DNA of 64,000 nucleotides. Source: JAWCQZ01 sp038869515 [NCBI: Halobacteria archaeon] (GTDB taxonomy: Archaea > Halobacteriota > Syntropharchaeia > JACQPP01). Positions 31,902-61,473 of this stretch are shown here, piece by piece (position 1 is the stretch's first letter; every line of letters begins with the position of its first letter). The position numbers and the translations under genes are program-made. A model generated the notes under the pieces. That model saw nothing but the letters and a program-made list of their open reading frames with translations. It was not told the origin of the DNA and ran no database searches. The stretch is taken from contig JAWCQZ010000002.1 of NCBI GenBank assembly GCA_038869515.1, positions 186,001 to 250,000 on the forward strand, written 5' to 3'.

Positions 31902-32819
31902 CTACTTCAGGAGTCCCGCCTTTTTTGCAATGGCCAGTTTCTTCTCTTCGACCCGGATGGTCGCCCGGTCCACCATCTCGTCGCCCACCACGATGGCCCC
32001 GAGCCCCTTCTCCACGTCGGCCCGGTTGTAGGCGCTGATGATCTTCGACGCCTTCTCGATGTCCTCGGGGCTCGGCGTGAACGCCTTGTTGATGACCTCG
32101 ACGTGGGTCGGGTGGATGGCCCACTTGCCGTCGAACCCCATGGCCCGCGCCTTCTCGGCGTCGCTGCGGACGAGATCAAGTTCCTTGAACTTCAGGGTGA
32201 CGCAGTCCACGGCGTCGAGGCCCGCCGACTTCGCTGCGGCGATCATCTTCTGCTTGGCGTAGACGTAGGAGGAGAAGGCGTCCGCGGTGAGGAGGGCACC
32301 CGTGTCCCCCGAGTAGTCGGCGATGCCGAAGATGAGTGACTCCATGCGCGGCGAGGCCCGGGCAATCTCCTCGGCGTGAAGGATGCCCATCGAGGACTCA
32401 ATGAGGACCTCCAGCCCGATTTTCCCGAGGGGGAGGCCGAACTTCATCTCTAATGCGGTCATGAGCCGGTCCACGTAGTGGATTTCGGAGGGGGCCTCGG
32501 TCTTCGGGAGGATGACGACGTCGATGTTCTTTCCCGCCCCGCCGATGATTTCGATCATGTCGTCGAGGAAGAAGTTCGTCCGGATGTTGTTCGGGCGGAA
32601 GGCGAGGATCTTTCCGCTCCAGTCGAGGGTGTTTGCGGCTTCGACGAGGGTCTTGCGGGCCGCGACCTTCTGGCTCAGGGCGCAGGCATCCTCGAGGTCG
32701 AGCATGACCTCATCGGCCTTGGAGCCCGCCGCCCCCGACATCATCTTCAGGCTGTGGGCCGGCGTGGTCAATTCGGTTCTCCGGACCCGGATTTTCTTGC
32801 CGCTGGCGTGTCCGGCCAT
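31902..32819 (-). CDS. CitE-like / HpcH-HpaI family CoA-ester lyase
   Basis: A 305-residue TIM-barrel lyase that cleaves malyl-, methylmalyl- or citramalyl-CoA-type substrates. Evidence is VMLDLEDACALSQKVAARKT near the N-terminus, LAFRPNNIRT with the substrate Arg, VVILPKTEAPSEI, LEVLIESSMGI containing the metal Glu, and FGIADYSGDTG. KWAIHPTHVEVINKAFTPSPE near the end is typical. It is the last gene of a MaoC-ACAD-MaoC-lyase operon, 2 bp after the preceding stop, which favours a role in branched/C5 acyl-CoA cleavage. The exact substrate is not determined. Confidence 0.87.
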   Translation of the reverse strand: MAGHASGKKIRVRRTELTTPAHSLKMMSGAAGSKADEVMLDLEDACALSQKVAARKTLVEAANTLDWSGKILAFRPNNIRTNFFLDDMIEIIGGAGKNIDVVILPKTEAPSEIHYVDRLMTALEMKFGLPLGKIGLEVLIESSMGILHAEEIARASPRMESLIFGIADYSGDTGALLTADAFSSYVYAKQKMIAAAKSAGLDAVDCVTLKFKELDLVRSDAEKARAMGFDGKWAIHPTHVEVINKAFTPSPEDIEKASKIISAYNRADVEKGLGAIVVGDEMVDRATIRVEEKKLAIAKKAGLLK

Positions 32820-32821
32820 GG

Positions 32822-33325
32822 TCAGGTCGCCCCCGCTTTTGGCCTTCTTGGGATAAGGGCTTCGTAGACCGCCTCGCAGCAGACGGTCTTGCGGTCTTGC
32901 TTCAGCCCGGTCAGTTTGAAGGTGACGATGCCCCGGTCCTTCCGGTCGGCGTCGCGCTTCTCCAGCACCTCGGTCTTCGCGAAGAGGGTGTCCCCGGCGT
33001 GGACCCCGGCCGAGTGGCGTGCCTCCTTCAATTTCAGGACCGCGAGGGCGCTCTCGGTGGTGTCGGGGGTCGAGAGCCCCATGAGGAGGGAGAGGACGTA
33101 GGGCCCCGCGACCGGCCGCTTCCCCTTGAACTGCGCCTGGAGGTCGGGGTCCTGGTCGCAGAGGGCTTGGTTGAAGTGGAGTTGGGCGGTGTTCAGGACC
33201 TGGAGCGTGAAGAGGATGTGCTCGGAGTCCCCCACGGTCCGCCCCCGGGAGTGGACGAGGACGTCCCCGACCTCGAAGTCCTCGAAGTGGTTGCCGGGGC
33301 CGGTGAGGGGGGAAGGGGGTTTCAT
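32822..33325 (-). CDS. MaoC-like hotdog dehydratase/hydratase
   Basis: A 167-residue single-hotdog enoyl-CoA hydratase-like protein. HFEDFEVGDVLVHSRGRTVG is the usual opening, with LNTAQLHFNQALC around the active-site helix and ARHSAGVHAGDTLFAKTEVL later. Start ATG 33325 precedes the conserved part. Its pairing with a second MaoC gene, an acyl-CoA dehydrogenase and a CitE-like lyase is like mesaconyl-CoA or itaconyl-CoA hydratase contexts; this is inference. Confidence 0.82.
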   Translation of the reverse strand: MKPPSPLTGPGNHFEDFEVGDVLVHSRGRTVGDSEHILFTLQVLNTAQLHFNQALCDQDPDLQAQFKGKRPVAGPYVLSLLMGLSTPDTTESALAVLKLKEARHSAGVHAGDTLFAKTEVLEKRDADRKDRGIVTFKLTGLKQDRKTVCCEAVYEALIPRRPKAGAT

Positions 33326-33377
33326 GGAAGGATGAAGAGTTCTCCGCCCTCCGGCCACATCCTTCCGCCTTCATCCT

Positions 33378-34547
33378 TCATTTTTCCACCAGCCTCTTGC
33401 CGATGACGTCCAGCTGGATTTCCGACGTCCCCTCGAAGAGCGAGAAGACCTTCCCGTCCCGCCAGTAGCGCTGGACGTCGAACTCCTCGCTGTAGCCGTA
33501 GCCCCCGTGGATTTGGACCGCCTCGCGGGTGACGAACTCCACCATCTCGGCGGCGAAAGCCTTCGCCATCCCCGCCTCCAGGTCGCACCTCCCGCCGGTG
33601 TCCTTCATCCGGGCAGCGTAGTAGGTCAGCTGCCGCGCGGCCTCGAGGCGGGTCCGCATCTCGGCCAGTTTGTGCCGGATGACCTGGTGCTCGTGCAGTT
33701 TCTTCCCGAACTGGGTCCTCTGGTTCGCGTACTTCAGCGCCGCGTCGAAGGCCGCCTGTCCCACGCCCACCGCGCGCGCCGCGGTCTGGATGCGCGCGGT
33801 CTCGTAGGTGTTCATCAACTGGTAGAACCCCTTGTTCAACTCCCTGCCGACGATGTTCTCCTCCGGGACGAAGTAGTCCTCGAAGGAGATGGAGTAGCAC
33901 TTCATGCCCCGGTAGCCGATGTGGGGGATGTGCTCGCCGGTCAGGTTCGGGGGCTTGAACGTGTCCCCGGGCTCCTTCTCGACGAGGAACATCGTGAGCC
34001 CCTTGTGCTTGGGCTGGACCTTGGGGTCTGTCCGGGCGAGAAGCGTCAGGACTCCGGCGCGGTTGGCGAGCGTGCACCATGTCTTCTGGCCGTTGATGTG
34101 GTAGCCCCCCTTCACCTTGTCCGCCCGGCACTCGAAGGAGGCGGTGTCGCTCCCGTGGTTGGGCTCCGTGAAAGCGGCCGCGGGGAGGATTTTGCCCGAG
34201 GCCAGGAGGGGCAGCCACCTCTCCTTCTGCTCCTTCGTGCCGCTGTTCAGGAGGAGGGTCCCCGTGATGAGGCTCCGGGTCATGATGGAGCCCACGGAGA
34301 GCCAGCCGCGGCACAACTCCTCGGCCACCACGACCATCGCCTGGTGGTTGAGGCCGGAACCGCCGTACTCGGCCGGGAAGATGATGCCGAAATAGCCCAG
34401 GTCTCCCATCTGCTTGATGACGCCCATGGGAATTTCCTGGGACTTGCGGTCGAGGTCGCTCGCGACCGGCTCCACCTCCTTGGCGACGAAGTCCCGGACC
34501 GCGGTGCGAATCTCCTCGACGGCATCGGCTCCGCCGGCCGCGCTCAC
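33378..34547 (-). CDS. Acyl-CoA dehydrogenase
   Basis: A 389-residue FAD enzyme that makes 2,3-enoyl-CoA. Motifs are PAEYGGSGLNHQAMVVVAEE, AFTEPNHGSDTASFECRA for FAD/substrate binding, RTQFGKKLHEHQVIRHKLA, and IHGGYGYSEEFDVQRYWRDGK with FEGTSEIQ at the C-terminus; the Glu of FEGTSE is the likely catalytic base. GTG 34547 overlaps the stop of the preceding MaoC gene (GTGA), so they are coupled. Methylsuccinyl-CoA or isovaleryl-CoA-type substrates are possible. Confidence 0.9.
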   Translation of the reverse strand: MSAAGGADAVEEIRTAVRDFVAKEVEPVASDLDRKSQEIPMGVIKQMGDLGYFGIIFPAEYGGSGLNHQAMVVVAEELCRGWLSVGSIMTRSLITGTLLLNSGTKEQKERWLPLLASGKILPAAAFTEPNHGSDTASFECRADKVKGGYHINGQKTWCTLANRAGVLTLLARTDPKVQPKHKGLTMFLVEKEPGDTFKPPNLTGEHIPHIGYRGMKCYSISFEDYFVPEENIVGRELNKGFYQLMNTYETARIQTAARAVGVGQAAFDAALKYANQRTQFGKKLHEHQVIRHKLAEMRTRLEAARQLTYYAARMKDTGGRCDLEAGMAKAFAAEMVEFVTREAVQIHGGYGYSEEFDVQRYWRDGKVFSLFEGTSEIQLDVIGKRLVEK

Positions 34548-35038
34548 GGCGACCTCTTGCGGATGAGATTGGTGCGGGTGTAGTCGAGCACCATCTCGTC
34601 CCTCTGGTTGTAGGCCTTCGTGCGGACCTTGAGGACCCCCTGGCCCGGGCGGCTCTCGCTGACCCGCGTCTCGAGGACCTCGCTCTGGGCCCGGAGGGTG
34701 TCGCCCGGGTAGACCGGCCGGTGGAAGGTCATCTCCCCGTAGCCCAGGAGAGCGGTCGCCTGCTCCGAGATGTCCTCCACGCTCATCCCGAGGACGATGT
34801 TGAACACGAGCCAGGGGCAAACCACTATGTCCGGGTGGCCCTGGGATTGCGCGTGGGAGCGGTTGAAGTAGAGCGGGTTGTAGTTCATGGTCTGGGTCGC
34901 GAAGGCGACCGCCTCGGCCTCGGTAACGGTCCGGCCGTAGTGGTGGTGGTAGGTCTCGCCCACCTTGAAATCCTCGAAATGGCGCCCACGCTCGCAGAGC
35001 CGCTCGCGCTTCGCCGTGGCGGCGGGCTGGGAAGCCAT
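34544..35038 (-). CDS. MaoC-like hotdog dehydratase/hydratase
   Basis: A 164-residue protein with HFEDFKVGETYHHHYGRTVT, FATQTMNYNPLYFNRSHAQS carrying the hydratase Asn/His region, GYGEMTFHRPVYPGDTLRAQ and a C-terminal KVRTKAYNQRDEMVLDYTRT. It heads the four-gene operon; a GGATTTATTTAGG box lies about 25 nt before ATG 35038. Together with the second MaoC gene it may form a two-subunit hydratase. Confidence 0.85.
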   Translation of the reverse strand: MASQPAATAKRERLCERGRHFEDFKVGETYHHHYGRTVTEAEAVAFATQTMNYNPLYFNRSHAQSQGHPDIVVCPWLVFNIVLGMSVEDISEQATALLGYGEMTFHRPVYPGDTLRAQSEVLETRVSESRPGQGVLKVRTKAYNQRDEMVLDYTRTNLIRKRSP

Positions 35039-48425: not shown

Positions 48426-49136
48426 TCAGAGCCCCATCTCGTCCCGCAACTTGACCATCCGCCCCGGCCGGTTGGTGATGAGCCCCGACGCCCCCCGCTC
48501 CATCAGGCTCCTTCCGATCCCGAGGCTGTCCACCGTCCAGGGGTAGACCGGCAGCCCCCTCCGCTTCGCCGTCTCCATCATCCCGTTGGCGAGGGTGTAG
48601 AAGGGCGCGATGGCCCGCGCCTTGGAGAGCCGCCACCCGAGGGGCCTCTTGAGGAAGTTGGGGGACTCGTCCGCGAGCAGCAGCCCCGTCGGCAGCTTCG
48701 CCGCCTGCCGCAGGATGAGCGGGTGGAACGAAATGACCGTGGCGCGCCCGAGGGCCCCCGCCTCCTTCAACGTCCGCAGGACCGCCGGCACCGAGCGGGG
48801 CGAATCCTTCACCTCGACGAAGAGGCGGCCCGGGACCTCCCGCGCCACCTCCTCGAGGGTCGGGATGCGCTCCCCCGCGAACTTCGGGTTGAAGTAGCGG
48901 CCGGCGTCGAGCTCCTTCAACTCCCGCGCGCTCTTCTCGGCGACGCGGCCCCGCGTCCCGGTGGTCCGCAGGAGGAGAGGGTCGTGGATGACCATGGGGA
49001 CGCCGTCCCGGCTCAGGTGGATGTCCATCTCCACTCCGTCCGCCCCCTGTTCCATGGCACTCCGGAAGGCGACGAGGGTGTTCTCGGGGGCCACGGAGGA
49101 GGCTCCGCGGTGCGCGATGACGAGGGGGCGGGCCAT
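48426..49136 (-). CDS. Glycerophosphodiester phosphodiesterase
   Basis: A 236-residue TIM-barrel GDPD that hydrolyses glycerophosphodiesters to glycerol phosphate and an alcohol. The N-terminal LVIAHRGASSVAPENTLVAF supplies the catalytic His and metal Glu; DGVEMDIHLSRDGVPMVIHD holds further metal ligands and the second His. YPWTVDSLGIGRSLMERGAS and LITNRPGRM complete the C-terminal signature. No signal peptide is seen, so it is cytoplasmic. It diverges from the Tes-like gene. Confidence 0.93.
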   Translation of the reverse strand: MARPLVIAHRGASSVAPENTLVAFRSAMEQGADGVEMDIHLSRDGVPMVIHDPLLLRTTGTRGRVAEKSARELKELDAGRYFNPKFAGERIPTLEEVAREVPGRLFVEVKDSPRSVPAVLRTLKEAGALGRATVISFHPLILRQAAKLPTGLLLADESPNFLKRPLGWRLSKARAIAPFYTLANGMMETAKRRGLPVYPWTVDSLGIGRSLMERGASGLITNRPGRMVKLRDEMGL

Positions 49137-49201: not shown

Positions 49202-49345
49202 GTCGAAAGGGTCAGGCATCTGTCGAACTTTTCCTGAAAAACTCGTCATAAAATCTTCGCATCTTCGACACCCGGATTCGGGCAGTGTGCCCGCCGACTG
49301 CGAAATAAGGAATCGGGCCTGTTGGCCGGTGTCGAACTCTTCGAC
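49202..49345. promoter_or_regulatory. GTCGAA/TTCGAC site cluster upstream of the Tes-like gene
   Basis: The 262-bp gap between the GDPD and Tes-like genes holds GTCGAA at 49202 and 49222, TTCGAC at 49264, and a perfect palindrome GTCGAACTCTTCGAC at 49331-49345, about 18 bp before the TATA-like box. This looks like an operator region for a dimeric regulator, position inferred. No candidate regulator is adjacent. Confidence 0.45.
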
Positions 49346-49362
49346 GCCCGTCAATCTGGAAG

Positions 49363-49371
49363 GCTTATCTA
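49363..49371 (+). promoter_or_regulatory. TATA-like box of the Tes-like gene
   Basis: GCTTATCTA lies 28-36 nt before the ATG at 49399, consistent with a message that has a very short leader. Confidence 0.5.
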
Positions 49372-49398
49372 TCCTCGACAGCCCCGTCACTAAGCGAG

Positions 49399-51318
49399 AT
49401 GGTCAACGCATATCCCCAGGCGATTGAGCATCCGGTGAGCCGGTACGAGCAGGTCCCGACCTCGCCCTACGTGAAGGATTACACCGCCGAGAGGAAGCAG
49501 GCCCTCGTCTCGCTCCTCCCCCCCGGCGCCCAGGTCCTCAAGTTCCACCAGTCCCTCTGCCCCGGCTGCGTGGACGCCGGGACCTTCGAGGCGATGAAGA
49601 TCGACTGCGTGACCTACGTCCGCGAGGGCAAGGTCTGGATGGCGAAGCAGTGCGCCAGCCACGGCCCCTACCATGAGGTCTACTGGAGCGACTACGAGAT
49701 GTTCAAAAAGGCCGAGAAGTGGCAGGACCCCGGCATCAAGATTCTCAACCCCCACATCGACAAGTCCCAGTTCGACATCGACTGCCCGAGCGACTGCGGC
49801 CTCTGCGTCGAGCACGAGTCCCACACCGGACTCGGCAACATCGTCCTGACCAACCGGTGCGACCTGACCTGCTGGTACTGCTTCTTCTACGCCAAGGAGA
49901 ACGAGCCCATCTACGAGCCCACCCTCGACCAGATCAAGTTCATGCTGAAGCGGATGAAGATGGTGAAGCCCGTCGGGGCCAACGCGGTCCAGTTGACCGG
50001 CGGCGAGCCGACGCTGCGGGACGACTTCCTCGACATCATCCGGGCGGCCAAGGAGGCCGGATACGACCACGTCCAGCCGAACACCAACGGCATCCGCATC
50101 GCCCGGGAGCCCGAGTTCGCCCAAAAGATGCGGGAGGCGGGCGCGAACAACCTCTACATGTCCTTCGACGGCGTGACCCCCGCGACCAACCCCAAGAACT
50201 TCTGGGAGGTCCCGCGGGCCCTCGAGAACTGCCGGAAGGCCGGCCTGGGGGTCGTCCTCGTCCCGACCGTCATCGGCGGCGTCAACGACCACGAGCTCGG
50301 CGACATGATCCGGTTCGGCGCGGGCCACATGGACGTTGTCCGCTCCGTGAACTTCCAGCCCGTCAGCCTCGTCGGGCGCATCCCCGACACCCTCCGGAAG
50401 CAGCAGCGCATCACGATTCCGGGGGCCATCAAGCGCATCGAGGACCAGACCGACGGCCAGGTGGGCAGGGAGGACTTCTTCCCGGTCCCCTGCGCCAAGC
50501 AGGTCACCGATTTCATCGAGGCCATCAAGGAGGAGCCGAAGTACCGGCTCTCCATCCACTTCGCCTGCGGCATGGCGACCTACGTCTTCAAGGACAAGGA
50601 CCGGCAGAGCCGGCTGGTCCCCATCACGCGGTTCTTCGACGTGGAGGGCTTCTTCGAGTACCTCGGACAGTTGACCGAGGAGATCCACTCCGCGAAGTAT
50701 CGCAAGGCGCGCAAGGCCCTGGTGGTCGCGAAACTCCTCGCGAACATCAACAAATACCTCGACCGGAAGGAGAAGCCGAAGAGCCTCAAGTTCGGGAGGA
50801 TGCTCGCGGGCGCCATGACAGGGGGCAACTACCACGGCCTCGCGGACTTCCACTACAACTCGCTCTTCATCGGCATGATGCACTTCCAGGACCCCTACAA
50901 CTGGGACATTGACCGCATCCACAAGTGCGACATCCACTACGCGACCCCCGACGGCCGGGTACTGCCCTTCTGCACCTTCAACGTCATCCCCGAGATGTAC
51001 CGCGACAAAATCCAGCGCAAGTACTCCATCCCCGCCTCCGACTGGGAGCGGAAGACCGGGAAGCGGTTGAATCAGGACAAGTACCACCGGCAACTCACCC
51101 CCGACGAGATGAAGGCCATCGTGGCCCACTACAACCAGTTCCGCAAGACCCAGGTGAAGATCAGCCCCGAGCCCGACTGGGGCCCGGCGGCCCTCCAGCC
51201 CGACATGGTCACCGGCTCCCTCCCCATCCTCAGCGCGTCCGGCGCGGTCGCCCCCATGACGGAGAACGGCATGCTGGTCGGCAAGGGCGGCTGCGGCTCC
51301 GGCTGCGGCGGGCACTAG
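49399..51318 (+). CDS. tes: Tetraether lipid synthase (Tes)-like radical SAM protein
   Basis: A 639-residue radical SAM enzyme of the MJ0619/Tes type, which couples phytanyl chain ends of archaeal diether lipids into tetraethers; known members carry extra Fe-S centres and a rubredoxin-like iron. The radical SAM CxxxCxxC is C154/C158/C161 (in NRCDLTCWYCFFYAK). Further cysteines are C54/C57 (LCPGC), C70, C85 and C129/C133/C136. VQLTGGEPTLRDDFLDIIRA follows as the SAM-binding GGE motif. The C-terminus is an unusual GGCGSGCGGH tail. Downstream genes are three ferredoxins, a reductase and a GGGP synthase, which supports a lipid role. Identity to Tes rather than a close paralog is inferred. Confidence 0.83.
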   Translation: MVNAYPQAIEHPVSRYEQVPTSPYVKDYTAERKQALVSLLPPGAQVLKFHQSLCPGCVDAGTFEAMKIDCVTYVREGKVWMAKQCASHGPYHEVYWSDYEMFKKAEKWQDPGIKILNPHIDKSQFDIDCPSDCGLCVEHESHTGLGNIVLTNRCDLTCWYCFFYAKENEPIYEPTLDQIKFMLKRMKMVKPVGANAVQLTGGEPTLRDDFLDIIRAAKEAGYDHVQPNTNGIRIAREPEFAQKMREAGANNLYMSFDGVTPATNPKNFWEVPRALENCRKAGLGVVLVPTVIGGVNDHELGDMIRFGAGHMDVVRSVNFQPVSLVGRIPDTLRKQQRITIPGAIKRIEDQTDGQVGREDFFPVPCAKQVTDFIEAIKEEPKYRLSIHFACGMATYVFKDKDRQSRLVPITRFFDVEGFFEYLGQLTEEIHSAKYRKARKALVVAKLLANINKYLDRKEKPKSLKFGRMLAGAMTGGNYHGLADFHYNSLFIGMMHFQDPYNWDIDRIHKCDIHYATPDGRVLPFCTFNVIPEMYRDKIQRKYSIPASDWERKTGKRLNQDKYHRQLTPDEMKAIVAHYNQFRKTQVKISPEPDWGPAALQPDMVTGSLPILSASGAVAPMTENGMLVGKGGCGSGCGGH

Positions 51319-51414
51319 GGGGCGCGATGGCCTCTCCTTCGCCCATGGCTGCGGTCCAGAGGATTCGTTTCCCGTCGAGCGCGGGGTCTCTAAACGACGA
51401 TTTCCGAGGCCGCG

Positions 51415-51672
51415 ATGGCGCGCTATAAGGTGGAGTTCGACCGGAAAGGGTGCATCGGCGCCGAGACCTGCGCCATCATCCACGAGAAGGGGTACAGGAT
51501 GAACAAGGACGGGAAGGCAGACCTCCTCGGCGGAGCCCCCAGCGGGCAGGAGGGGCACTTCGAACTGATGGTCGAGGAGCCCGACCTCGCCCTCCACAAG
51601 CAGGCCGCCGAGGGGTGCCCGGCGGAGGTCATCCGCATCACCAACCTCGACACCGGGGAGAAGGTGTTCTGA
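51415..51672 (+). CDS. Ferredoxin-like protein lacking one cluster cysteine
   Basis: An 85-residue ferredoxin fold: C13 and C19 in GCIGAETCA and C68 in GCPAEV. The usual second Cys of CxxCxxC is Ala, so three ligands remain, fitting a [3Fe-4S] centre or a [4Fe-4S] with another ligand. It is acidic and probably an electron donor. TCTCTAAACG about 20-28 nt before ATG 51415 may be its own promoter. It lies 96 bp after the Tes-like gene and 1 bp before the next gene. Confidence 0.78.
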   Translation: MARYKVEFDRKGCIGAETCAIIHEKGYRMNKDGKADLLGGAPSGQEGHFELMVEEPDLALHKQAAEGCPAEVIRITNLDTGEKVF

Positions 51673-51673
51673 G

Positions 51674-52504
51674 ATGGCCGACGGCCCCCCCCAACTCCCG
51701 CCCGGCCTCACCCCGGAGGACCTGCGCCAGATGGCCGCCTCGGTCCCCGCCGACCCGGTGGTTCCCGGCCGGCCCGTCACCGGCACGATGCGCCTCGGCG
51801 ACATCCTTGCCGCCTACCCCGCGGCCGCGGCGGTCGTCTCGAAGTACGGCCTCCACTGCTCCGGCTGCCACGCCAACGTCCTCGACACCCTGGAGGTCGG
51901 CGCCCGGGGCCACGGCCTCGGCGAGGTCGAGATCAAGGCGATGGTGTGGGAGATCAACCAGGTCGCCCGGGGCAAGGAGGTCTCCCCGGCCCCCGCTGCG
52001 GCCGCCCCGGCCAAGGCCAGCGCGTTCTGCTCCTTCATCGGGAACCCGGACTCCATCAACCTCAGCGATGGAGCGGCGGCCCGGTTGCGGGAGGCCCTCG
52101 TCCGGAGGCAGCGGCCTCGCCACGGAATCCGCATCGGAATCCACAAGGAGGGCCCCGCGGGCTACATCTACTACATGGACTTCGAGCGCAAGCCGAAGAA
52201 GGGCGACGCCGTCTTCAAGGAGAAGGGGTTCCGGTTCTTCGTGGATGCTTCCATCGAGAAGTTCATCCGCGGCATCCACCTGGACTACGAGAGCGGGTTC
52301 GAGGGCGAGGGGTTCCGGCTCACGAACCCGAACCTCTCCAACGCCGACTTCCTGAAGCGAAGGGCCGAGGCGCCCCTTCCGCTGCTCGAGGCCGCCCCCG
52401 GCGGCGGTCCGGCGGACGCGCCATCCCCGTCCCGCTCCGAACCGGAGGTGAACGGGGTTCCGGCAGAACTGGCGCCGCAGCGCTACCGGAACCTGGGGTT
52501 GTGA
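51674..52504 (+). CDS. DUF1858-IscA/HesB-like fusion without the A-type cysteines
   Basis: A 276-residue two-part protein. Residues about 38-95 match the DUF1858/ScdA N-terminal domain, including YGLHCSGCHANVLDTLEVGA with its CxxCH. After an Ala/Pro linker comes a HesB/IscA fold (INLSDGAAARLREALV, IRIGIHKEGPAGYIYYMDFE, FRFFVDASIEKFIRGIHLDY, GFRLTNPN). The normal GCSG and CGCG cysteines are absent (GPAG and NLSNADF instead), so it cannot ligate a cluster like standard A-type carriers. It may be a scaffold or partner for the neighbouring ferredoxins and radical SAM enzyme. Function inferred only from context. Confidence 0.72.
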   Translation: MADGPPQLPPGLTPEDLRQMAASVPADPVVPGRPVTGTMRLGDILAAYPAAAAVVSKYGLHCSGCHANVLDTLEVGARGHGLGEVEIKAMVWEINQVARGKEVSPAPAAAAPAKASAFCSFIGNPDSINLSDGAAARLREALVRRQRPRHGIRIGIHKEGPAGYIYYMDFERKPKKGDAVFKEKGFRFFVDASIEKFIRGIHLDYESGFEGEGFRLTNPNLSNADFLKRRAEAPLPLLEAAPGGGPADAPSPSRSEPEVNGVPAELAPQRYRNLGL

Positions 52505-52506
52505 CG

Positions 52507-52629
52507 ATGGTCGAAAAAAAACCCGAGGTCCGGGCTTGCGTTTCCGGCGCGGTCATCGTCGAGGAGAAGGAGACCCGGTTCAAGGATGGCATCCGGCGGC
52601 TCGCCGCCGTCCTGGGGGCCCGCTGGTGA
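52507..52629 (+). CDS. Very small protein, unknown
   Basis: A 40-residue ORF (MVEKKPEVRACVSGAVIVEE, ending RRLAAVLGARW) with one Cys. Its ATG is 2 bp after the preceding stop and its stop overlaps the possible GTG start of the next ferredoxin gene. Position inside the operon is the main support for it being real. No family is recognised. Confidence 0.45.
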   Translation: MVEKKPEVRACVSGAVIVEEKETRFKDGIRRLAAVLGARW

Positions 52630-52634
52630 CCGGC

Positions 52635-53045
52635 ATGACCTCCGGGACCCAGTGGACGGCGAAGGGGGCGGACTCCCCGACGGCCGCCGAGGCGCCCCGG
52701 GCCGGCGGAGGGCCGACCATGTCGGCCCACGGCGCCCCGAAGAACGGCGCTCCGGCCCCGAAAACGGTCAAAATCCGCATCGTCTACAACAAGAAGGGGT
52801 GCATCGGCTCGGGCCACTGCGTCCTCAGCGACCCCTACAACTTCGTCCTCGACGACGAGTTCCACGCCGACCTGAAGGGGGGCAAGCCCATGGGGGGGCT
52901 GAACAGCCAGGTCTTCGTCCGGGAGACCGAGACCGACTCGCCGCATCTCGCCATCAACGCGGCCCACACCTGCACGCCGAAGGTCATCGCGGTCTTCCAG
53001 CAGGTGGAGGAAAACGGGAAGTCCTCCTGGAGGCGAATGGATTAG
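52635..53045 (+). CDS. Second ferredoxin-like protein lacking cluster cysteines
   Basis: A 136-residue protein with a disordered 45-residue N-terminus and a ferredoxin fold: C56 and C62 in GCIGSGHCVLS and C113 in HTCTPKVI. As in the first ferredoxin, the second Cys of the CxxCxxC pattern is missing (Ser here), and the usual CP has become CT. A GTG at 52626 overlapping the previous stop is an alternative start. It ends 1 bp before the 2[4Fe-4S] ferredoxin. Confidence 0.72.
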   Translation: MTSGTQWTAKGADSPTAAEAPRAGGGPTMSAHGAPKNGAPAPKTVKIRIVYNKKGCIGSGHCVLSDPYNFVLDDEFHADLKGGKPMGGLNSQVFVRETETDSPHLAINAAHTCTPKVIAVFQQVEENGKSSWRRMD

Positions 53046-53046
53046 G

Positions 53047-53340
53047 ATGAAAGTAGACAACAGCGTCTGCCTCCACTGCGGCGCCTGCGTGGGCATCTGC
53101 CCGCCCAACGCCCTCTTCCTCCACGAGACCGAGACCATCGAGTTCCTCGACAATTGCACCGAGTGCGGCCTCTGCGTCTGGGTCTGCCCGGTCGGGGCCA
53201 TCGACTTCGGCGACTCCCCCGCCAAGCCGCCGCCGCGGAAGGTCCCGGCGGAGCCGCGGCTCTTCCTGGTCGGCGTGGACGGCGGCTGGAAGTCCAGGGG
53301 GAACGGGAAGCACAACGGGACGGAGGGGGCCCCGAAATGA
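53047..53340 (+). CDS. 2[4Fe-4S] ferredoxin
   Basis: A 97-residue protein with two complete motifs: C8/C11/C14/C18 in CLHCGACVGICP and C37/C40/C43/C47 in CTECGLCVWVCP. A basic, Gly-rich tail of about 45 residues follows. It should carry low-potential electrons, plausibly to the geranylgeranyl reductase or the radical SAM enzyme. Its end overlaps the reductase start by ATGA. Confidence 0.92.
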   Translation: MKVDNSVCLHCGACVGICPPNALFLHETETIEFLDNCTECGLCVWVCPVGAIDFGDSPAKPPPRKVPAEPRLFLVGVDGGWKSRGNGKHNGTEGAPK

Positions 53341-54536
53341 GAACCCTGGAATATGACGTCCTGGTCGTCGGCGCCGGCCCGTCGGGCAGCAGCGCGGCCC
53401 GCTACGCCGCGCAGGGGGGCGCCCGGACCCTCATGATCGAGAAGCGGCAGGAGATCGGCTCGCCGGTCCGGTGCGGCGAGGGGCTCTCCAAGTCGGTCCT
53501 CGACGAGGTCAAGATTCCCCGGTCCAACAAGTGGGTAGCGAACGAGGTCGCCGGGGCGCGCATCTTCTCCCCGAACGGCGCCTGCATGAAGTTGCGGGCC
53601 GAGCAGGCGGGCAACGAGGTCGGCATCGTCCTGGAGCGGGACGCCTTCGACAAGGCCCTCGCCGAGCTCGCCGTGCGGGCGGGGACCGACCTCCTGGTGA
53701 AGACCAGCGCCACCTCCATCCTCAAGTCGAACGGCCACGTCGAGGGCGTCCGGGCGGTGGTCCAGGGAGAGCCGGTCGAAATCCGCGCCAGACTCACCAT
53801 CGGGGCCGACGGCTTCGAGTCCCAAATCGGGCGCTGGGCCGGCCTCAACACCCTGCTCAAGACGCGGGACGTCGACGCGACCCTCCAATACCGCCTCGCC
53901 AACATCGAGTGCGACGCCGACTTCTGCGACTTCTACCTCGGCAACGAGGTGGCCCCCGGGGGCTACGTCTGGGTCTTCCCCAAGGGCGAGGACGTGGCCA
54001 ACGTGGGCATCGGGGTCCAGTTGAGCCAGACGAGGCAGAAGGCCGACACCCGCTACTACTTGGACAGGTTCATCGCCGAGCACCCCGGAATCGCGAGGGG
54101 GAGGCCCCTCGACATGGTGTGCGGCGCGGTCTCCACCTGCAAGCCCCTCTCGAAGACCGTGACCGACGGCCTCATGCTCGTCGGCGACGCGGCGCGGATG
54201 ATCGACCCCATCACCGGCGGCGGCATCGCGAACGGATGCCTCGCGGGGATGTTCGCGGGCCAGGTGGCCAACGAGGCCCTCCAGGCCGGGGATTTCTCCG
54301 GCGCCTTTCTCCAGCGATACGAGAAGGCGTGGCGCTCGCGGCTGGAGCGGCTACTTACCCGGAACTGGATGGCCAAGGAGAAGTTCGGGAAGCTGAGCGA
54401 CGACACGCTGAACAAGGTCATCGAGACCCTCTCCGAGGTCCACATGGACGAGATCAACACCCTCAACCTGCTCAAGGCGGTCCAGAGCAAGCACCCCGAA
54501 CTGCTCCGGGAACTCAACGAGCTCATGGCGGCCTGA
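53337..54536 (+). CDS. Geranylgeranyl reductase family protein (digeranylgeranylglycerophospholipid reductase)
   Basis: A 399-residue FAD flavoprotein that hydrogenates the prenyl chains of archaeal lipids. YDVLVVGAGPSGSSAARYAA binds FAD; VRCGEGLS is the conserved motif following the dinucleotide site, IGADGFESQIGRW and LMLVGDAARMIDPITGGGIA complete the fold. ATGA overlap with the ferredoxin gene indicates coupling and a likely electron donor. GGGP synthase follows after 5 bp. Confidence 0.93.
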   Translation: MRTLEYDVLVVGAGPSGSSAARYAAQGGARTLMIEKRQEIGSPVRCGEGLSKSVLDEVKIPRSNKWVANEVAGARIFSPNGACMKLRAEQAGNEVGIVLERDAFDKALAELAVRAGTDLLVKTSATSILKSNGHVEGVRAVVQGEPVEIRARLTIGADGFESQIGRWAGLNTLLKTRDVDATLQYRLANIECDADFCDFYLGNEVAPGGYVWVFPKGEDVANVGIGVQLSQTRQKADTRYYLDRFIAEHPGIARGRPLDMVCGAVSTCKPLSKTVTDGLMLVGDAARMIDPITGGGIANGCLAGMFAGQVANEALQAGDFSGAFLQRYEKAWRSRLERLLTRNWMAKEKFGKLSDDTLNKVIETLSEVHMDEINTLNLLKAVQSKHPELLRELNELMAA

Positions 54537-54541
54537 GGGAT

Positions 54542-55333
54542 ATGGCCTCCCCTCTCTGGAAGAACGGAAACGGCCACGGCCTGGTCTCCTTCCTCGAGAG
54601 GCGGATGGCCCGCAAGGCCCTCCACTTCGTCCTGGTGGACCCCGACAAGGCCCGGAACGGCGAGGCCGCGAGGGTGGCCCGCGCCGCCGCGGCGGCGGGC
54701 AGCGACGCCCTCCTGGTCGGCGGCTCCACCGGCCTCACCCCCGTCTCGGTGGCCCGCACCGTGGAGTCCCTGCGGGCGGAATTCTCCGGCCCCATCCTCC
54801 TCTTCCCGAGCTCCACCCGGGCATTCTCCCCCAACGCCGACGGAATCCTCTTCCTCTCCCTCCTCAACTCCCGCTCCCGCCGCTTCATCGTCGGGGAGCA
54901 GGTCCGGGGAGCCGAGGCCATCCGCCGCTCCGGCGTCGAGCCCATCCCGACCGCCTACCTCATCGTGGCCCCCGGGCGCCGGGCGGGCCGGGTGGGGCGG
55001 GCGACTCCGCTCCCCCGCGAGCGCCCTTCCGCCGCCGCCCGCTACGCCCTCGCCGCCCAGATGCTCGGCATGAGGTGGGTCTACCTCGAGGCGGGTTCCG
55101 GCGCGGACCAGCCGGTCCCCCCCGGGCTGGTCTCCCGGGTCCGCGCCTCGGTGGACCTCCCCCTCCTCGTGGGCGGCGGCGTCCGGACCCCGGCCCAGGC
55201 GCGGGCCCTGGTCGAGGCGGGGGCTTCGGCGGTCGTGACCGGGACCGCCGTGGAGCGGGCCGCCGACCCGGCGCCCCTGCTCCAGGGGTTCGCCAGGGCC
55301 ATCCACGGGGCCTCCCATGGCCCCGGCCATTGA
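54542..55333 (+). CDS. Geranylgeranylglyceryl phosphate synthase
   Basis: A 263-residue TIM-barrel prenyltransferase that makes the first ether bond of archaeal lipids from glycerol-1-phosphate and geranylgeranyl diphosphate. ALHFVLVDPDKARNGEAARV, DALLVGGSTGLT, ILLFPSSTRAFSPNADGILF and WVYLEAGSGADQPVPPGLVS followed by LLVGGGVRTPAQARALVEAG are the family motifs. It closes the tightly packed lipid group. The next gene overlaps its last 17 bases. Confidence 0.94.
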   Translation: MASPLWKNGNGHGLVSFLERRMARKALHFVLVDPDKARNGEAARVARAAAAAGSDALLVGGSTGLTPVSVARTVESLRAEFSGPILLFPSSTRAFSPNADGILFLSLLNSRSRRFIVGEQVRGAEAIRRSGVEPIPTAYLIVAPGRRAGRVGRATPLPRERPSAAARYALAAQMLGMRWVYLEAGSGADQPVPPGLVSRVRASVDLPLLVGGGVRTPAQARALVEAGASAVVTGTAVERAADPAPLLQGFARAIHGASHGPGH

Positions 55334-56447
55334 GGCGGCTGAGTTGCGGAGCAAAGCGACCGGAGGCACCGGAGACGACTCTGCGGATATGCGATCCGGG
55401 ACGGCCGCCCCGACCCCTCATCCCCGCGAGTTGCCCCTCGGCGCACCCTTCGAAATTCCCGCGGACCCGTTGCCGCCCGGCCTCCTGCCCGGCGGCGACG
55501 ACGTGATCGACCTGCGCCAGGCCGCCCTCCGGATCCTTCAGCGCCACTACGCCGGCCGGGGCTGGGCGGTCCTGCAGGGCGCCGACTTCGAGGAGAACCT
55601 CCTCCACGCCGAGCACGACACCGTGCCGCGGCGGGAGTGGGACGAATACGCCCGCATCAAACTGGGGAAGTCCCCATTCAGCCACCGGGCCCGGAGATAC
55701 TCGGCCGAGGTCCTGCGCCACGCGCCTCCGGGAGCGGTCGAGAACCTCCTCGCCGCGTGCCGCCTCTGCACCTACGCGGGGGGCCCCGGGTTCCCCGACA
55801 TGGTGCTCCTGGGCGACGGGCTGCGGCTCCGGGCCCTGGCGGTCGGGGAGCGGGCCCCTTCCGACGGAAGGGGGCGGGGGGCGCCGGAGATGGGCCCGTG
55901 GACCCGGGAGCAGAAACTCTTCGCGTTCATTGCCACTCTGTCGGGTCTGGAGATCCGAGCCGCGGGCCCCGGGGCCCCGGTCCGTTTCGTTCCCGCAGAA
56001 CTCCTCGACGCGGTCCTCGCCGACCCGCGGGCCCGCGCGATGCGCGATGGGCTCGAGGCCGCCCTCGCGAGGGAACGGGAGCGGCTCCCGAAGGCCGCGC
56101 CGGAGGAGGCCCGCCGCGCCCAGGACGAAATCGAGGCCCTGGAGGTGGAGCGCTTCCGCAGCCCCTTCCCTCTCCTCCGGAGGTGGCGGGAGGAGGGCGT
56201 CGCCCGGTGGAGGGACGTGGAGGCGCACCGGGATCTCCTCCGGGCCTCCCACCGGGCCCGACTGGCGCGCTTCGCTTCGGTGGAGTCCACCCTGCGGGGC
56301 GACCCCCGCTTCCCCCGGTGGACCGGGAACCCCGCCCCCGAGGCGCTGGCCGACCTCGCCGGGCTCCTCGGGACCCGCTTCGGCCTGGGGGAGACCCGGG
56401 CCAAGGCGTTCCTCCTCTATCTGAAGGATTCGGCATCGACCCCTTAG
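55317..56447 (+). CDS. Uncharacterised protein, possibly with a nuclease-like core
   Basis: A 376-residue protein from ATG 55317, or ATG 55389 if the Thr/Pro-rich first part is not translated. A middle section (LRILQRHYAGRGWAVLQGAD, then AGGPGFPDMVLLGDGLRLRA) has a G-x-PD pattern reminiscent of VRR-NUC-type nucleases, but the Lys motif that should follow is not seen. The C-terminal half is helical and charged. It overlaps the GGGP synthase gene and ends at the start of the G-rich repeat. Function not assigned. Confidence 0.55.
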   Translation: MAPAIEAAELRSKATGGTGDDSADMRSGTAAPTPHPRELPLGAPFEIPADPLPPGLLPGGDDVIDLRQAALRILQRHYAGRGWAVLQGADFEENLLHAEHDTVPRREWDEYARIKLGKSPFSHRARRYSAEVLRHAPPGAVENLLAACRLCTYAGGPGFPDMVLLGDGLRLRALAVGERAPSDGRGRGAPEMGPWTREQKLFAFIATLSGLEIRAAGPGAPVRFVPAELLDAVLADPRARAMRDGLEAALARERERLPKAAPEEARRAQDEIEALEVERFRSPFPLLRRWREEGVARWRDVEAHRDLLRASHRARLARFASVESTLRGDPRFPRWTGNPAPEALADLAGLLGTRFGLGETRAKAFLLYLKDSASTP

Positions 56448-56568: not shown

Positions 56569-57306
56569 ATGAAAATCCTCAAGACCTACGTGGAGGGGCT
56601 CGACGAGAAGCTCGGGGGCGGTATCCCCGAGAAGCACATCGTCGTCGTCACGGGGAACCCCGGGACTCTCAAATCCACCATCACCTACAACATCCTCTAC
56701 CACAACGCGAAGAACGAGGGCGTCAAGGGTGCCTATGTGAGCCTCGAGCAGCGGGCCGAGGACCTCACGGCCCAGATGGACCGGCTGGGAATGAAGCACG
56801 CCGACGTGAAGAAGGACCTGGTCATGGTGGACGTGGGCAAGGTCCGGTTCGTCACCGAGGACTACGGCCTCAAAAAGGGGTGGATCTTCATCGTCCAGGA
56901 CCTCATCAAGGAGGCGAAGGAGCAGGTGGACTTCAGCACCATCGTCATCGACTCCCTCGACGTCTTCGAGACGATGTTCGGGGGCGAGGACCCCCGCATC
57001 AACCTGTTCAAGTTCCTGGAGTTCCTCAAGGGCATGAACCTCACCTGCTTCCTCATCGCCGAGATGTCCATGGACTCGAAGGAATACGCCAAGCACGGCA
57101 TCGACTTCCTCGCCGACGGCATCATCGCCCTCTCCCTCGCCCCGGTGAAGGTCCAGACTCAGATGGGCTTCTTCGACGACCCCAAGGAGCGCGTCCGGAG
57201 CATCGCCTGCGTCAAGTTGCGGGGGATGAACAACAGCACCCAGACCTACCAGCTGGTTCTGGAGAACAACAAGCTGAAGGTCACTGACCTGCCCGTCAAG
57301 AAGTAG
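56569..57306 (+). CDS. KaiC-like RecA-superfamily ATPase
   Basis: A 245-residue single-domain KaiC-like ATPase. LDEKLGGGIPEKHIVVVTGN PGTLKST contains the Walker A at about 29-37, and FSTIVIDSLDVFETMF the Walker B Asp. IAEMSMDSKEYAKHGIDFLA and CVKLRGMNNSTQTYQL are typical of this archaeal group, which often acts with signalling or motility genes. It is clearly paralogous to the gene at 60754. CGTTTATCTTG lies 23-32 nt before ATG 56569. Confidence 0.87.
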   Translation: MKILKTYVEGLDEKLGGGIPEKHIVVVTGNPGTLKSTITYNILYHNAKNEGVKGAYVSLEQRAEDLTAQMDRLGMKHADVKKDLVMVDVGKVRFVTEDYGLKKGWIFIVQDLIKEAKEQVDFSTIVIDSLDVFETMFGGEDPRINLFKFLEFLKGMNLTCFLIAEMSMDSKEYAKHGIDFLADGIIALSLAPVKVQTQMGFFDDPKERVRSIACVKLRGMNNSTQTYQLVLENNKLKVTDLPVKK

Positions 57307-60753: not shown

Positions 60754-61473
60754 CTACTTCCAGACGTCCGCAATCCCCATCGGGATGCGGAACTTCCCGG
60801 AGCCGAAGATGAGCGCGAAGAAGTCGGTGGAGTGGTTGCATCCGCGCATCTTGACCACCTTGATGCGGCGGTGGGAGTGGATGTCGTCCACCATCTCCAG
60901 GGCCATGTGGATGATGCCGTCCGCGAGGAAGTCCGCCCCGTGGCGCGCGAACTCCTTGGAGTCCATGGACATCTCGGAGATGAGGAAGGAGGTGGCGTTC
61001 AGCCCCCGGAGCCACTTGAAGAACTCGAACAGTTCGATGCGCGGGTCCTCGACGCCGGCGATGGTCTCGTAGATGTTCAAACTGTCGAGGACCAGGATGT
61101 CGAGGCCGCGCTCCCGCTTCGTGGTCTCGATGAGGTCGCGGATGATGAACGACCACGATTTCCGGAGGCCGTAGTCCTCGGTCTCGAGGCGGGTCTTGCT
61201 CAGGTCGAGGAGCGAGACCTTGTCCTGGACGTTGGCGTGGGTGAGGCCGAGCCCCTCCATGTGCTCGACGAGGCTCTCCCGGTCCTGCTCCAGGGAGAAG
61301 TAGGCGCCGTTCATCCCGTTCTCCACCGCGTTGTGGTAGAGGATGTTGTAGGCGAGGCTGGACTTCATGGTGCCAGCGGTCCCGGCCAGGAGGACCACGT
61401 GGTTCTTCGGTATCCCGCCGCCCAGGTGCTTGTCGAATCCGTCGACGAAGGTCTTGATGCGCTCCTTGGCCAT
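60754..61473 (-). CDS. KaiC-like RecA-superfamily ATPase (paralog)
   Basis: A 239-residue protein similar along its length to the ATPase at 56569. Walker A is LLAGTAGTMKSS at about 28-39; LDILVLDSLNIYETIAGVED holds the Walker B, and SEMSMDSKEFARHGADFLAD matches the paralog almost word for word. The two paralogs flank a block of cobO, VOC, zinc-ribbon and MFS genes and face each other. Start ATG 61473 fits the alignment. Confidence 0.87.
   Translation of the reverse strand: MAKERIKTFVDGFDKHLGGGIPKNHVVLLAGTAGTMKSSLAYNILYHNAVENGMNGAYFSLEQDRESLVEHMEGLGLTHANVQDKVSLLDLSKTRLETEDYGLRKSWSFIIRDLIETTKRERGLDILVLDSLNIYETIAGVEDPRIELFEFFKWLRGLNATSFLISEMSMDSKEFARHGADFLADGIIHMALEMVDDIHSHRRIKVVKMRGCNHSTDFFALIFGSGKFRIPMGIADVWK

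What the first reader, a model, noticed from the sequence alone, without database searches (positions are those of the whole stretch)
49331..55333. Candidate dedicated tetraether-lipid operon: Tes-like enzyme with its own redox proteins
Eight genes lie in one direction with very short gaps after the first: Tes-like radical SAM, ferredoxin, DUF1858-HesB-like protein, a 40-residue protein, a second odd ferredoxin, a 2[4Fe-4S] ferredoxin, geranylgeranyl reductase and GGGP synthase. The sequence shows the order, the coupling overlaps (ATGA, possible GTGA) and the motifs. Known biochemistry says Tes needs many reducing equivalents and the reductase needs a ferredoxin. That this is one pathway unit for building cross-linked, saturated lipids is inference; the atypical ferredoxins and carrier-like protein may be undescribed Tes or reductase partners.
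Basis: partly seen in the sequence, partly recalled or inferred. Interest (0 to 1): 0.85.

Follow-up and report, generated by a model that had tools for sequence, protein, structure and literature searches.

The report
Archaeal tetraether-lipid operon with own ferredoxins
An uncultured archaeon keeps enzymes that build, saturate and cross-link its membrane lipids in one gene cluster together with unusual small iron-sulphur proteins, and a distant relative keeps almost the same cluster, which points to candidate electron-supply or repair partners of the cross-linking enzyme.

Summary
Eight co-directional ORFs lie at 49399-55333. Seven have relatives: Tes (NCBIfam equivalog, 686 bits, cut-off 450), a 3-Cys ferredoxin (Fd1), a DUF1858+HesB-fold protein, a second 3-Cys ferredoxin (Fd2), a 2[4Fe-4S] ferredoxin (Fd3), geranylgeranyl reductase (GGR) and GGGP synthase. 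The 40-residue ORF has none found. The one close relative found (G429; EF-2 76% identical) carries Tes-Fd1-HesB-Fd2-thiolase-Fd3-GGR-UbiA-GGGPS with gaps of -4 to 15 nt, so the cluster is conserved and lipid-related. Fd-GGR pairing and a GGR-Fd-Tes neighbourhood (MA_1484-1486) were already published. The part I saw in no paper is the Tes-Fd1-HesB(-Fd2) module. It recurs beside one Tes clade of Aenigmatarchaeota (DUF1858-HesB within 2 kb in 9 of 14 genomes, 0 of 69 other Tes-bearing genomes of that phylum). The window/G429 Tes belongs to that clade, while ten Tes of G429's own class fall with MJ0619, so Tes crossed phyla. In this clade a Cys-rich Tes tail and a downstream 3-Cys ferredoxin occur together (12 of 12, 0 of 4 without the tail). 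That Fd1 and the HesB-like protein power or maintain Tes is inference; the window HesB domain has lost its ligand cysteines.

The parts
49399..51318 (+). Tes, tetraether lipid synthase (radical SAM), 639 aa, with N-terminal and C-terminal extensions; C-terminus GGCGSGCGGH
   Evidence: NF045702 686 bits, cut-off 450; 7tol 5.9e-126; cofactor residues; clade
51280..51315 (+). Cys/Gly-rich C-terminal tail of Tes
   Evidence: at least 2 Cys in the last 45 residues goes with a 3-Cys ferredoxin downstream in 12 of 12 evaluable loci of the clade, 0 of 4 without; similar GCGC tails occur in other Tes without such a neighbour
51415..51672 (+). Fd1, single-cluster ferredoxin, motif CIGAETC...CP (3 Cys; Ala where 1siz has Asp)
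   Evidence: Fer4_15 40 bits; weak alignment to ferredoxins 2z8q/1siz, E 0.003-0.005; relatives
51674..52504 (+). DUF1858 (CSGC) + HesB/IscA-fold protein whose HesB ligand cysteines are lost
   Evidence: TIGR03980 and TIGR00049 above cut-off; alignment A1; model matches IscA 1s98, TMt 0.88
52507..52629 (+). p40, 40-residue ORF, doubtful gene
   Evidence: ORF; coding score 14; no relative; no room for it in G429
52635..53045 (+). Fd2, second single-cluster ferredoxin, motif CIGSGHC...CTP (3 Cys); a GTG start at 52626 would overlap the p40 stop
   Evidence: relatives at 45-56% identity in Aenigmatarchaeota, 72% in G429
53047..53340 (+). Fd3, 2[4Fe-4S] ferredoxin next to GGR
   Evidence: Fer4 and Fer4_7; 71% to G429; Fd-GGR pairing published
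53337..54536 (+). GGR, geranylgeranyl reductase, closest in PDB to 3oz2 (Thermoplasma, recalled); start overlaps the Fd3 stop (ATGA)
   Evidence: GGR_cat; NF041160 489 bits, below its 780 cut-off, and TIGR02032 250 bits, above cut-off; 3oz2 6.5e-135
54542..55333 (+). GGGPS, geranylgeranylglyceryl phosphate synthase
   Evidence: PcrB 154 bits, TIGR01769 221 bits, cut-off 161.6
49364..49371 (+). TATA-like CTTATCTA 35 nt upstream of the Tes ATG, candidate promoter (inference)
   Evidence: simple home-made consensus score; a weaker TATA-like word lies 26-28 nt before Fd1 at 51387-51396

Best explanation
It is a membrane-lipid operon that makes saturated, cross-linked (tetraether) archaeal lipids, with its redox supply built in. 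GGGPS starts the ether lipid. GGR saturates the chains with electrons from Fd3, the pairing known elsewhere. Tes joins the saturated chains by radical SAM chemistry. Fd1, and probably Fd2, are atypical 3-Cys ferredoxins dedicated to Tes; Fd1 may dock at the Cys-rich Tes tail and feed its [4Fe-4S] centres. The DUF1858/HesB-fold protein comes from a group one member of which sits beside SUF iron-sulphur assembly genes. It most likely helps keep the metal centres of Tes (three [4Fe-4S] clusters and a rubredoxin iron in MJ0619) in working order; in the window, where its cluster ligands are lost, it is more likely an adaptor. Tes, Fd1, the HesB protein and Fd2 form an accessory module shared with one Aenigmatarchaeota Tes clade; at least Tes moved between phyla. 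Shown: gene order, families, conservation, discordant Tes tree. Inferred: electron routes, docking, cluster maintenance, co-transcription.
For: Tes equivalog and conserved cofactor residues C54, C57, C85, H88; C129, C133, C136, H139; M494 (=Met439), Y514 (=Tyr459). Same cluster in G429 with tight gaps, plus a UbiA prenyltransferase and a thiolase. Full-length DUF1858-HesB within 2 kb of Tes on the same strand in 9 of 14 long-Tes genomes, 0 of 69 other Tes-bearing genomes, among 156 of the phylum (Fisher 6e-9, not corrected for kinship). Cys tail and downstream 3-Cys ferredoxin: 12 of 12, 0 of 4 without tail. Fd2 relatives at E below 1e-40 in 7 of 14 long-Tes genomes and 4 of 142 others; next to Tes in one of the 7 (G078). 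Fd-GGR pairing published: TK1087/TK1088 (PMC6401487), MA_1485/MA_1484 (PMC8941075), synteny in Euryarchaeota (PMC9385802). Fd1-like ferredoxin plus DUF1858-HesB beside sufC, sufB and sufD in G077. Tes made in E. coli was helped by an iron-sulphur maturation plasmid (PMC12042123). Tes tree against EF-2.
Against: MJ0619 makes GDGT in E. coli with MA1484-1485 and no Fd1-like partner named (PMC12042123), so a dedicated ferredoxin is not generally required. All three HesB ligand cysteines are lost in the window and the CGCG end in G429. DUF1858 is absent from G429's protein. Full-length DUF1858-HesB occurs in 11 of the 142 genomes without a long Tes. Fd2 lies on another contig than Tes in 6 of the 7 long-Tes genomes that have it. 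G009 and G010 have no DUF1858-HesB match. Cys tails occur in 36 of 164 other Tes loci and none of the 36 (34 with at least 700 nt downstream) has a 3-Cys ferredoxin downstream. The 96-nt gap after Tes with a TATA-like word could make Fd1-GGGPS a separate transcript in the window. No transcript, protein or lipid data.
Confidence: 0.58

Rival explanations
1. A lipid operon of the published sort (GGR-Fd-Tes, here with GGGPS). Fd1, Fd2 and the HesB protein are general iron-sulphur housekeeping genes that happen to lie there and have no special tie to Tes.
For: Fd1-like plus DUF1858-HesB pairs exist in G077 (beside SUF genes) and G130, neither with a Tes match at E 1e-100; Fd2 lies on another contig than Tes in 6 of 7 long-Tes genomes; MJ0619 works in E. 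coli without them.
Against: Adjacency of DUF1858-HesB to Tes is confined to one Tes clade (9 of 14, 0 of 69); tail and 3-Cys ferredoxin go together within the clade; the set is kept in order in G429 while the flanks differ.
Confidence: 0.27
2. The 3-Cys ferredoxins and HesB protein serve GGR or another step of chain saturation rather than Tes; Tes is only a neighbour.
For: In the window and G429 they lie between Tes and Fd3-GGR; a partner ferredoxin of GGR is known to matter.
Against: In loci L002-L009 a 3-Cys ferredoxin follows Tes within about 210 nt, and among L001-L011 (flanks of unequal length) a GGR match was found only in L002, about 6 kb from Tes with its own Fd3-like ferredoxin.
Confidence: 0.1
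3. The enzyme is a Tes paralogue of a divergent subfamily that couples lipids in another way (another bridge or substrate), and the accessory proteins fit that altered chemistry.
For: The clade is far from MJ0619 in the tree; several genomes of another phylum carry two Tes-like copies; it has extra N- and C-terminal extensions.
Against: The cofactor residues checked, including the labile Met and the Tyr, match MJ0619; the NF045702 equivalog score is well above cut-off.
Confidence: 0.05

Closest known systems
Tes / GDGT-MAS (MJ0619, PDB 7tol/7tom; MA_1486; Saci_0703)
   Same: Same family by equivalog model and by cofactor residues: rubredoxin-like C54, C57, C85, H88; N-auxiliary C129, C133, C136, H139; CxxxCxxC; Met494; Tyr514.
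   Different: Belongs to a clade distant from MJ0619, with about 45 extra N-terminal residues and a Cys/Gly-rich C-terminal extension; accompanied by 3-Cys ferredoxins and a HesB-like protein.
MA_1484-1485-1486 (GGR-ferredoxin-Tes of Methanosarcina acetivorans)
   Same: Tes close to a ferredoxin and GGR (PMC8941075, passages).
   Different: Here GGGPS, two further atypical ferredoxins and a DUF1858-HesB protein are added; G429 also has UbiA and a thiolase. In 15 further Tes loci fetched (L220-L234, 13 of them in MJ0619's clade) no GGR or ferredoxin match to the window or G429 proteins was found.
Fd-2/GGR pair TK1087-TK1088 of Thermococcus kodakarensis
   Same: A ferredoxin gene immediately upstream of GGR, proposed as its electron donor (PMC6401487, passages); Fd3 and GGR here overlap by 4 nt.
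   Different: No Tes in that pair; GGR here is closest in PDB to 3oz2.
A-type iron-sulphur carriers IscA/SufA/ErpA, and the IscA-like DsrR
   Same: HesB fold: model matches IscA 1s98 (TMt 0.88) and, weakly, DsrR 2k4z (E 6e-3).
   Different: Fused to DUF1858; ligand cysteines lost in the window. That DsrR also lacks the carrier cysteines is recalled, not from a call.
GMGT synthase Gms
   Same: Radical SAM enzyme that forms a C-C bond between lipid chains (PMC11186832, abstract and passages).
   Different: Gms is a SPASM-domain enzyme; the window protein has the zinc-ribbon/rubredoxin-like N-terminus (PF23545).

Membership tests
Tes (tetraether lipid synthase) | Radical SAM CxxxCxxC motif and PF04055 domain | tested here: met
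   PF04055 105.8 bits; TNRCDLTCWYCF aligned to MJ0619
Tes (tetraether lipid synthase) | Score above the NCBIfam equivalog cut-off and above paralogue models | tested here: met
   NF045702 686, cut-off 450; TrsS 334, cut-off 490
Tes (tetraether lipid synthase) | Rubredoxin-like C-x2-C...C-x2-H, N-auxiliary C/C/C/H, labile Met439, Tyr459 | tested here: met
   C54, C57, C85, H88; C129, C133, C136, H139; M494; Y514
Tes (tetraether lipid synthase) | Groups with characterised Tes in a tree rather than with non-Tes paralogues | tested here: inconclusive
   Window clade lies among Tes of several phyla but on the other side of the midpoint root from MJ0619; MA_1486 and non-Tes outgroups were not included
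Tes (tetraether lipid synthase) | Makes biphytanyl chains from saturated lipids | not testable with these tools
   needs enzyme assay or lipid analysis
Archaeol GGR | FAD-binding and GGR catalytic domain | tested here: met
   PF22578 100.6 bits, TIGR02032 250 bits; 3oz2 6.5e-135
GGGPS | PcrB fold family and phosphoglycerol geranylgeranyltransferase equivalog | tested here: met
   PF01884 154 bits, TIGR01769 221 bits, cut-off 161.6
Single-cluster [4Fe-4S] ferredoxin | Four cluster ligands (C-x2-C/D-x2-C...C; the Asp variant is recalled) | tested here: not met
   Fd1 CIGAETC...CP has Ala, Fd2 CIGSGHC...CTP has Ser at the second position; Ser could still ligate; a 3-Cys or [3Fe-4S]-type cluster is inferred
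A-type Fe-S carrier (IscA/SufA/ErpA) | HesB fold | tested here: met
   TIGR00049 74.3, cut-off 58.8; model against IscA
A-type Fe-S carrier (IscA/SufA/ErpA) | Three conserved ligand cysteines (one in GGC[SA]G, two in CGCG) | tested here: not met
   Window has EGPAG and no CGCG; 7 of the 9 relatives in A1 keep both; G429 keeps only the first
DUF1858 / hybrid-cluster-protein-associated redox disulfide domain | TIGR03980 match with CxxC | tested here: met
   51.3, cut-off 44.95, CSGC; Pfam DUF1858 28.6 is below its 32.2 cut-off

The most novel reading that the evidence does not exclude
A clade of tetraether synthases works as a multi-protein machine. Its Cys-rich tail docks a dedicated 3-Cys ferredoxin, and a HesB-fold/redox-disulfide protein recharges or repairs the auxiliary [4Fe-4S] cluster on whose sulphur the lipid radical is parked during coupling (intermediate reported for MJ0619, PMC9433317). 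The module travels between archaeal phyla, displaces the native Tes, and is assembled into a GGGPS-(DGGGPS)-GGR-Tes operon.
Probability: 0.22. Interest if true: 0.8.

Novelty: new variant of a known kind. Interest (0 to 1): 0.55.

Why it matters
The passages I read name no physiological electron donor or maintenance factor of Tes. This cluster names candidates that can be expressed and tested, and gives a compact lipid-pathway cassette. It also shows Tes being exchanged between an Aenigmatarchaeota-type and a euryarchaeal lineage, which bears on who makes tetraethers among DPANN archaea and on the use of tes genes as markers of particular archaea.

Tried and rejected
Window as a member of Aenigmatarchaeota: rejected. 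EF-2 is 51-53% identical to the eight genomes of that phylum with near-complete hits (G002, G005, G008, G010, G011, G073, G092, G121) and 76% to G429.

Window as Thermoplasmatota (from the GGR type): not supported. G429 lies in the phylum set of G016, an Archaeoglobaceae-labelled MAG, and EF-2 places the window with G429. No Thermoplasmatota genome could be reached for a direct comparison. NF041160 as a marker of origin is weak: it rings in 14 of 14 control genomes, over cut-off in none, and the window itself is below its cut-off.

Fd2 relatives as linked to lipid genes in Aenigmatarchaeota: not so at the six loci read. Neighbours named by eye were an RNA methyltransferase, a small acetyltransferase and a large secreted-looking protein in some of them, with a UbiA-like gene about 7.5 kb away in two.

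Cys tail as unique to this Tes clade: rejected. 36 of 164 other Tes loci (158 distinct) have at least 2 Cys in the last 30 residues, many GCGC in Nitrososphaeria.

'Tail and ferredoxin lost together at least twice': not claimed. L010 and L154 fall next to tail-bearing loci, but those branches have bootstrap 27 and 39.

HesB protein as a working cluster carrier in the window: doubtful, ligands lost. p40 as a conserved partner: no support.

Structure of Fd2: poor model (pLDDT 66), no PDB match with E 0.001 or better; profile search of PDB sequences found none; not used.

Paper searches listed no paper on a dedicated Tes ferredoxin by title or start of abstract; most were not opened, and the library lacks most subscription journals.

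Direction of transfer: open. L011 (Aenigmatarchaeota) branches outside the window+G429 pair with bootstrap 100, which favours an Aenigmatarchaeota source, but the grouping of the 13 other Aenigmatarchaeota rows as their sister has only 37, and L183, from the phylum set of G016, lies just outside.
Full report
Observation. Gaps between successive genes are 96, 1, 2, 5, 1, -4 and 5 nt. A home-made codon-usage caller keeps all eight, but six were among its seeds; Fd2 and p40 were not. GC of the window is 68.7%. On the other strand upstream lies a glycerophosphodiester-phosphodiesterase-like gene (48426-49136; best model 115.6 bits, below its cut-off of 264); downstream is a 376-codon ORF without family hits that overlaps GGGPS by 17 nt, then a KaiC-like ATPase and a cobalamin adenosyltransferase.

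Tes. The protein matches NCBIfam NF045702 (Tes equivalog) at 686 bits, cut-off 450, and the solved MJ0619 at 5.9e-126. Aligned to MJ0619, the rubredoxin-like ligands (C54, C57, C85, H88), the N-auxiliary ligands (C129, C133, C136, H139), the labile methionine (M494) and the conserved tyrosine (Y514) are kept; MJ0619 Cys456 is Asp511 here. Roles of these residues are from passages of PMC9433317. Compared with many other Tes it has an N-terminal extension of about 45 residues and a C-terminal extension ending in GGCGSGCGGH. It is not Gms, a SPASM enzyme (PMC11186832, abstract and passages).

Relatives. The best matches in genome contigs are L001-L011 (58-71% identity), then 56% or less among the 80 loci kept of 397; later searches gave up to 57% and 58% in two other phyla, apart from G429. 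Of L001-L011 one is titled Nanoarchaeota and two only 'archaeon', the rest Aenigmatarchaeota; all their genomes (G001-G011) fall in one phylum set. Among 156 genomes of that set 83 have a Tes at E 1e-100 or better. I of these 'long-Tes' (G001-G011, G078, G079, G083). Full-length DUF1858-HesB (profile A1, match from position 6 or lower to 185 or higher, my reading of the table) occurs in 21 of 156 genomes: 10 of the 14 long-Tes genomes and 11 others. It lies within 2 kb of Tes on the same strand in 9 of 14 (G002-G008, G078, G079). G001's contig ends 175 nt after Tes and G083 is split over contigs, so both are undecided; G011 has DUF1858 without HesB next to Tes; G009 and G010 have no match. In the other 69 Tes-bearing genomes it adjoins Tes in none; G073 and G085 have both genes apart. 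Fisher's test gives 6e-9, not corrected for kinship. In 246 genomes of the phylum of G016 the profile matched in 84 at E 1e-10, and no listed match spans the fusion.

Ferredoxins. Fd1 aligns weakly (E 0.003-0.005) with ferredoxins 2z8q and 1siz and has Ala where 1siz has Asp; that 1siz is P. furiosus ferredoxin with Asp14 as ligand is recalled. Fd2 has Ser at that place. Both have three cysteines in the cluster motif. A [3Fe-4S]-like or incompletely Cys-ligated cluster is inference. Within the Tes clade, every evaluable Tes with at least two Cys in its last 45 residues has a 3-Cys ferredoxin motif within 1.6 kb downstream (12 of 12: window, G429, L002-L009, L155, L158), and none of four without such a tail has one (L010 has a 4-Cys ferredoxin; L011, L154 and L156 none found). 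L001 (contig end) and L157 (fragment) were left out; L183, the other row of the clade, also has no such tail or neighbour. The two tail-less loci inside the clade, L010 and L154, fall beside tail-bearing ones, but with bootstrap 27 and 39 only, so the number of independent losses is open. Against a general rule, 36 of 164 other Tes loci (158 distinct) have Cys-containing ends, many GCGC in Nitrososphaeria, and none of those 36 (34 with 700 nt or more downstream) has a 3-Cys ferredoxin downstream; 1 of 152 loci with enough sequence had such a motif, behind a Tes without the tail. L032 (G073) has a Cys-rich tail and two ferredoxins upstream of Tes, one with Asp and one with Cys at the fourth-ligand place. 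Fd2 relatives at E below 1e-40 occur in 11 of 156 genomes, 7 of them long-Tes, but beside Tes only in G078, where the order is Tes, Fd2, Fd1, a glyoxalase-like ORF (named by eye), DUF1858-HesB.

A second copy of the cluster. G429, in the phylum set of G016, has a Tes 78% identical to the window's and an EF-2 76% identical over residues 1-601. Its 8.6-kb contig L212 (69.8% GC) starts inside Tes and continues Fd1 (62%), a HesB-only protein (33%, no DUF1858), Fd2 (72%), a thiolase, Fd3 (71%), GGR (69%), a UbiA prenyltransferase and GGGPS (49%), with gaps of 5, 15, 2, -1, 7, -4, 9 and -4 nt. The UbiA protein's best NCBIfam models are prenyltransferase and GGGP geranylgeranyltransferase families, below their cut-offs, so DGGGP synthase is likely, not proven. 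The downstream flank differs from the window's; upstream the contig ends. Conservation of order over this divergence is the strongest evidence for one functional unit. No other genome of G429's order is held.

Elsewhere such clustering is rare in what I held. In 139 Tes loci outside the clade (133 distinct; flank lengths vary), a GGR match lies within 4 kb in 3, GGGPS in 1, UbiA in 2 and an Fd1-like ferredoxin in 3, all upstream and none of the 3-Cys kind. L021 (Hecatellales) has GGGPS, GGR, Tes and a UbiA homologue together. Fifteen further loci, L220-L234, had no such neighbours.

Transfer. In trees of 149 and 159 Tes, window+L212 fall with the long-Tes rows (support 0.97-0.99), whereas 10 Tes from G429's own class (10 fetched, class of 58 genomes) fall with MJ0619 (support 0.998). 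In a 29-row ML tree the clade of window, L212 and 13 Aenigmatarchaeota rows has bootstrap 100 with L011 outside; how the pair sits against those 13 is unresolved (37). EF-2 shows the reverse affinity: 64-65% to G016 and G408, 51-53% to Aenigmatarchaeota. So Tes was exchanged between phyla, and in G429 and the window it stands where class-mates have the MJ0619 type. GGR scores 453 bits with 3oz2 but at most 349 bits with GGRs of G429's class other than G429 itself, so GGR too may come from elsewhere; this is a score comparison, not a tree. A small ferredoxin tree groups window and G429 Fd2 with the Aenigmatarchaeota Fd2 rows (0.998), with weak inner support.

HesB protein. In alignment A1, 7 of 9 relatives keep both the GGC[SA]G cysteine and CGCG; L004 keeps only the first (and lacks the DUF1858 CxxC), L154 neither in place, and the window has lost all three but keeps the DUF1858 CSGC. 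The model is an IscA fold. In G077, which has no Tes match at E 1e-100, an Fd1-like ferredoxin and DUF1858-HesB lie beside sufC, an intein-bearing sufB and sufD; in G130 the same two flank a nitroreductase-like ORF named by eye. This links the pair to iron-sulphur biogenesis rather than to lipids as such, and suggests recruitment to Tes; it rests on one genome.

How it most likely works. Published: ferredoxin next to GGR as its electron donor (PMC6401487, passages; PMC9385802, passages); Tes couples saturated chains through an intermediate bound to a cluster sulphur (PMC9433317, abstract passage); GGR-Fd-Tes neighbourhood in M. acetivorans (PMC8941075, passages). Inferred here: Fd3 serves GGR; Fd1 (and Fd2) serve Tes; the HesB-fold protein maintains or scaffolds Tes metal centres. 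On necessity: GDGT is made in E. coli with MJ0619 and MA1484-1485, without an Fd1-like partner, but with an added iron-sulphur maturation plasmid (PMC12042123, passages). This speaks against a strictly required special ferredoxin, not against a need for cluster maintenance; and MJ0619 belongs to another clade.

Novelty. Tes, GGR, their ferredoxin link and GGGPS are known. I saw the four-gene accessory module, its tie to one Tes clade, the tail-ferredoxin correlation and the inter-phylum transfer in none of the passages I read or the listings. I rate it a new variant of a known kind.

After the return for checking I mended: the caller's seeds, branch supports, duplicate loci, the E. coli plasmid, the identity ranges and several 'none' or 'all' statements; confidence in the best explanation went from 0.60 to 0.58 because of the weak inner supports.

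Noticed in passing
L018, L033-L036, L039-L043 and others (Nitrososphaeria-type Tes loci): Many Tes proteins outside the studied clade end in a GCGC-like tail of unknown role (36 of 164 loci have at least 2 Cys in the last 30 residues).
   Followed up: partly
L155:3096-6326 (G078): Tes carries an intein-like insertion near the radical SAM cysteines; long open frames in G122, G022, G252 and G199 suggest more.
   Followed up: no
L214:1352-3973 (G077): SufB with an intein, near sufC, sufD and an Fd plus DUF1858-HesB pair.
   Followed up: partly
window 55317-56447: 376-codon ORF overlapping GGGPS by 17 nt, no Pfam or NCBIfam match; what follows GGGPS in G429 is a different, membrane-like ORF.
   Followed up: partly
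window 56569-57306 and 60754-61473: Two KaiC-like ATPase genes on opposite strands, with a CobA-type adenosyltransferase between them; the second was named by eye from its sequence.
   Followed up: no
L021:5041-10113 (Hecatellales): GGGPS and GGR divergent from Tes and a UbiA homologue: a separate occurrence of tetraether-pathway clustering.
   Followed up: no
L032:7016-9578 (G073): Another Cys-tailed Tes with two ferredoxin genes just upstream, of the Asp and the 4-Cys kind.
   Followed up: partly
G012, G177-G183, G258, G368: Several euryarchaeal genomes carry two Tes-like genes; division of labour unknown.
   Followed up: no
window 31902-35038: By eye a CitE-like lyase, two MaoC-like hydratases and an acyl-CoA dehydrogenase in one run on the minus strand.
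   Followed up: no
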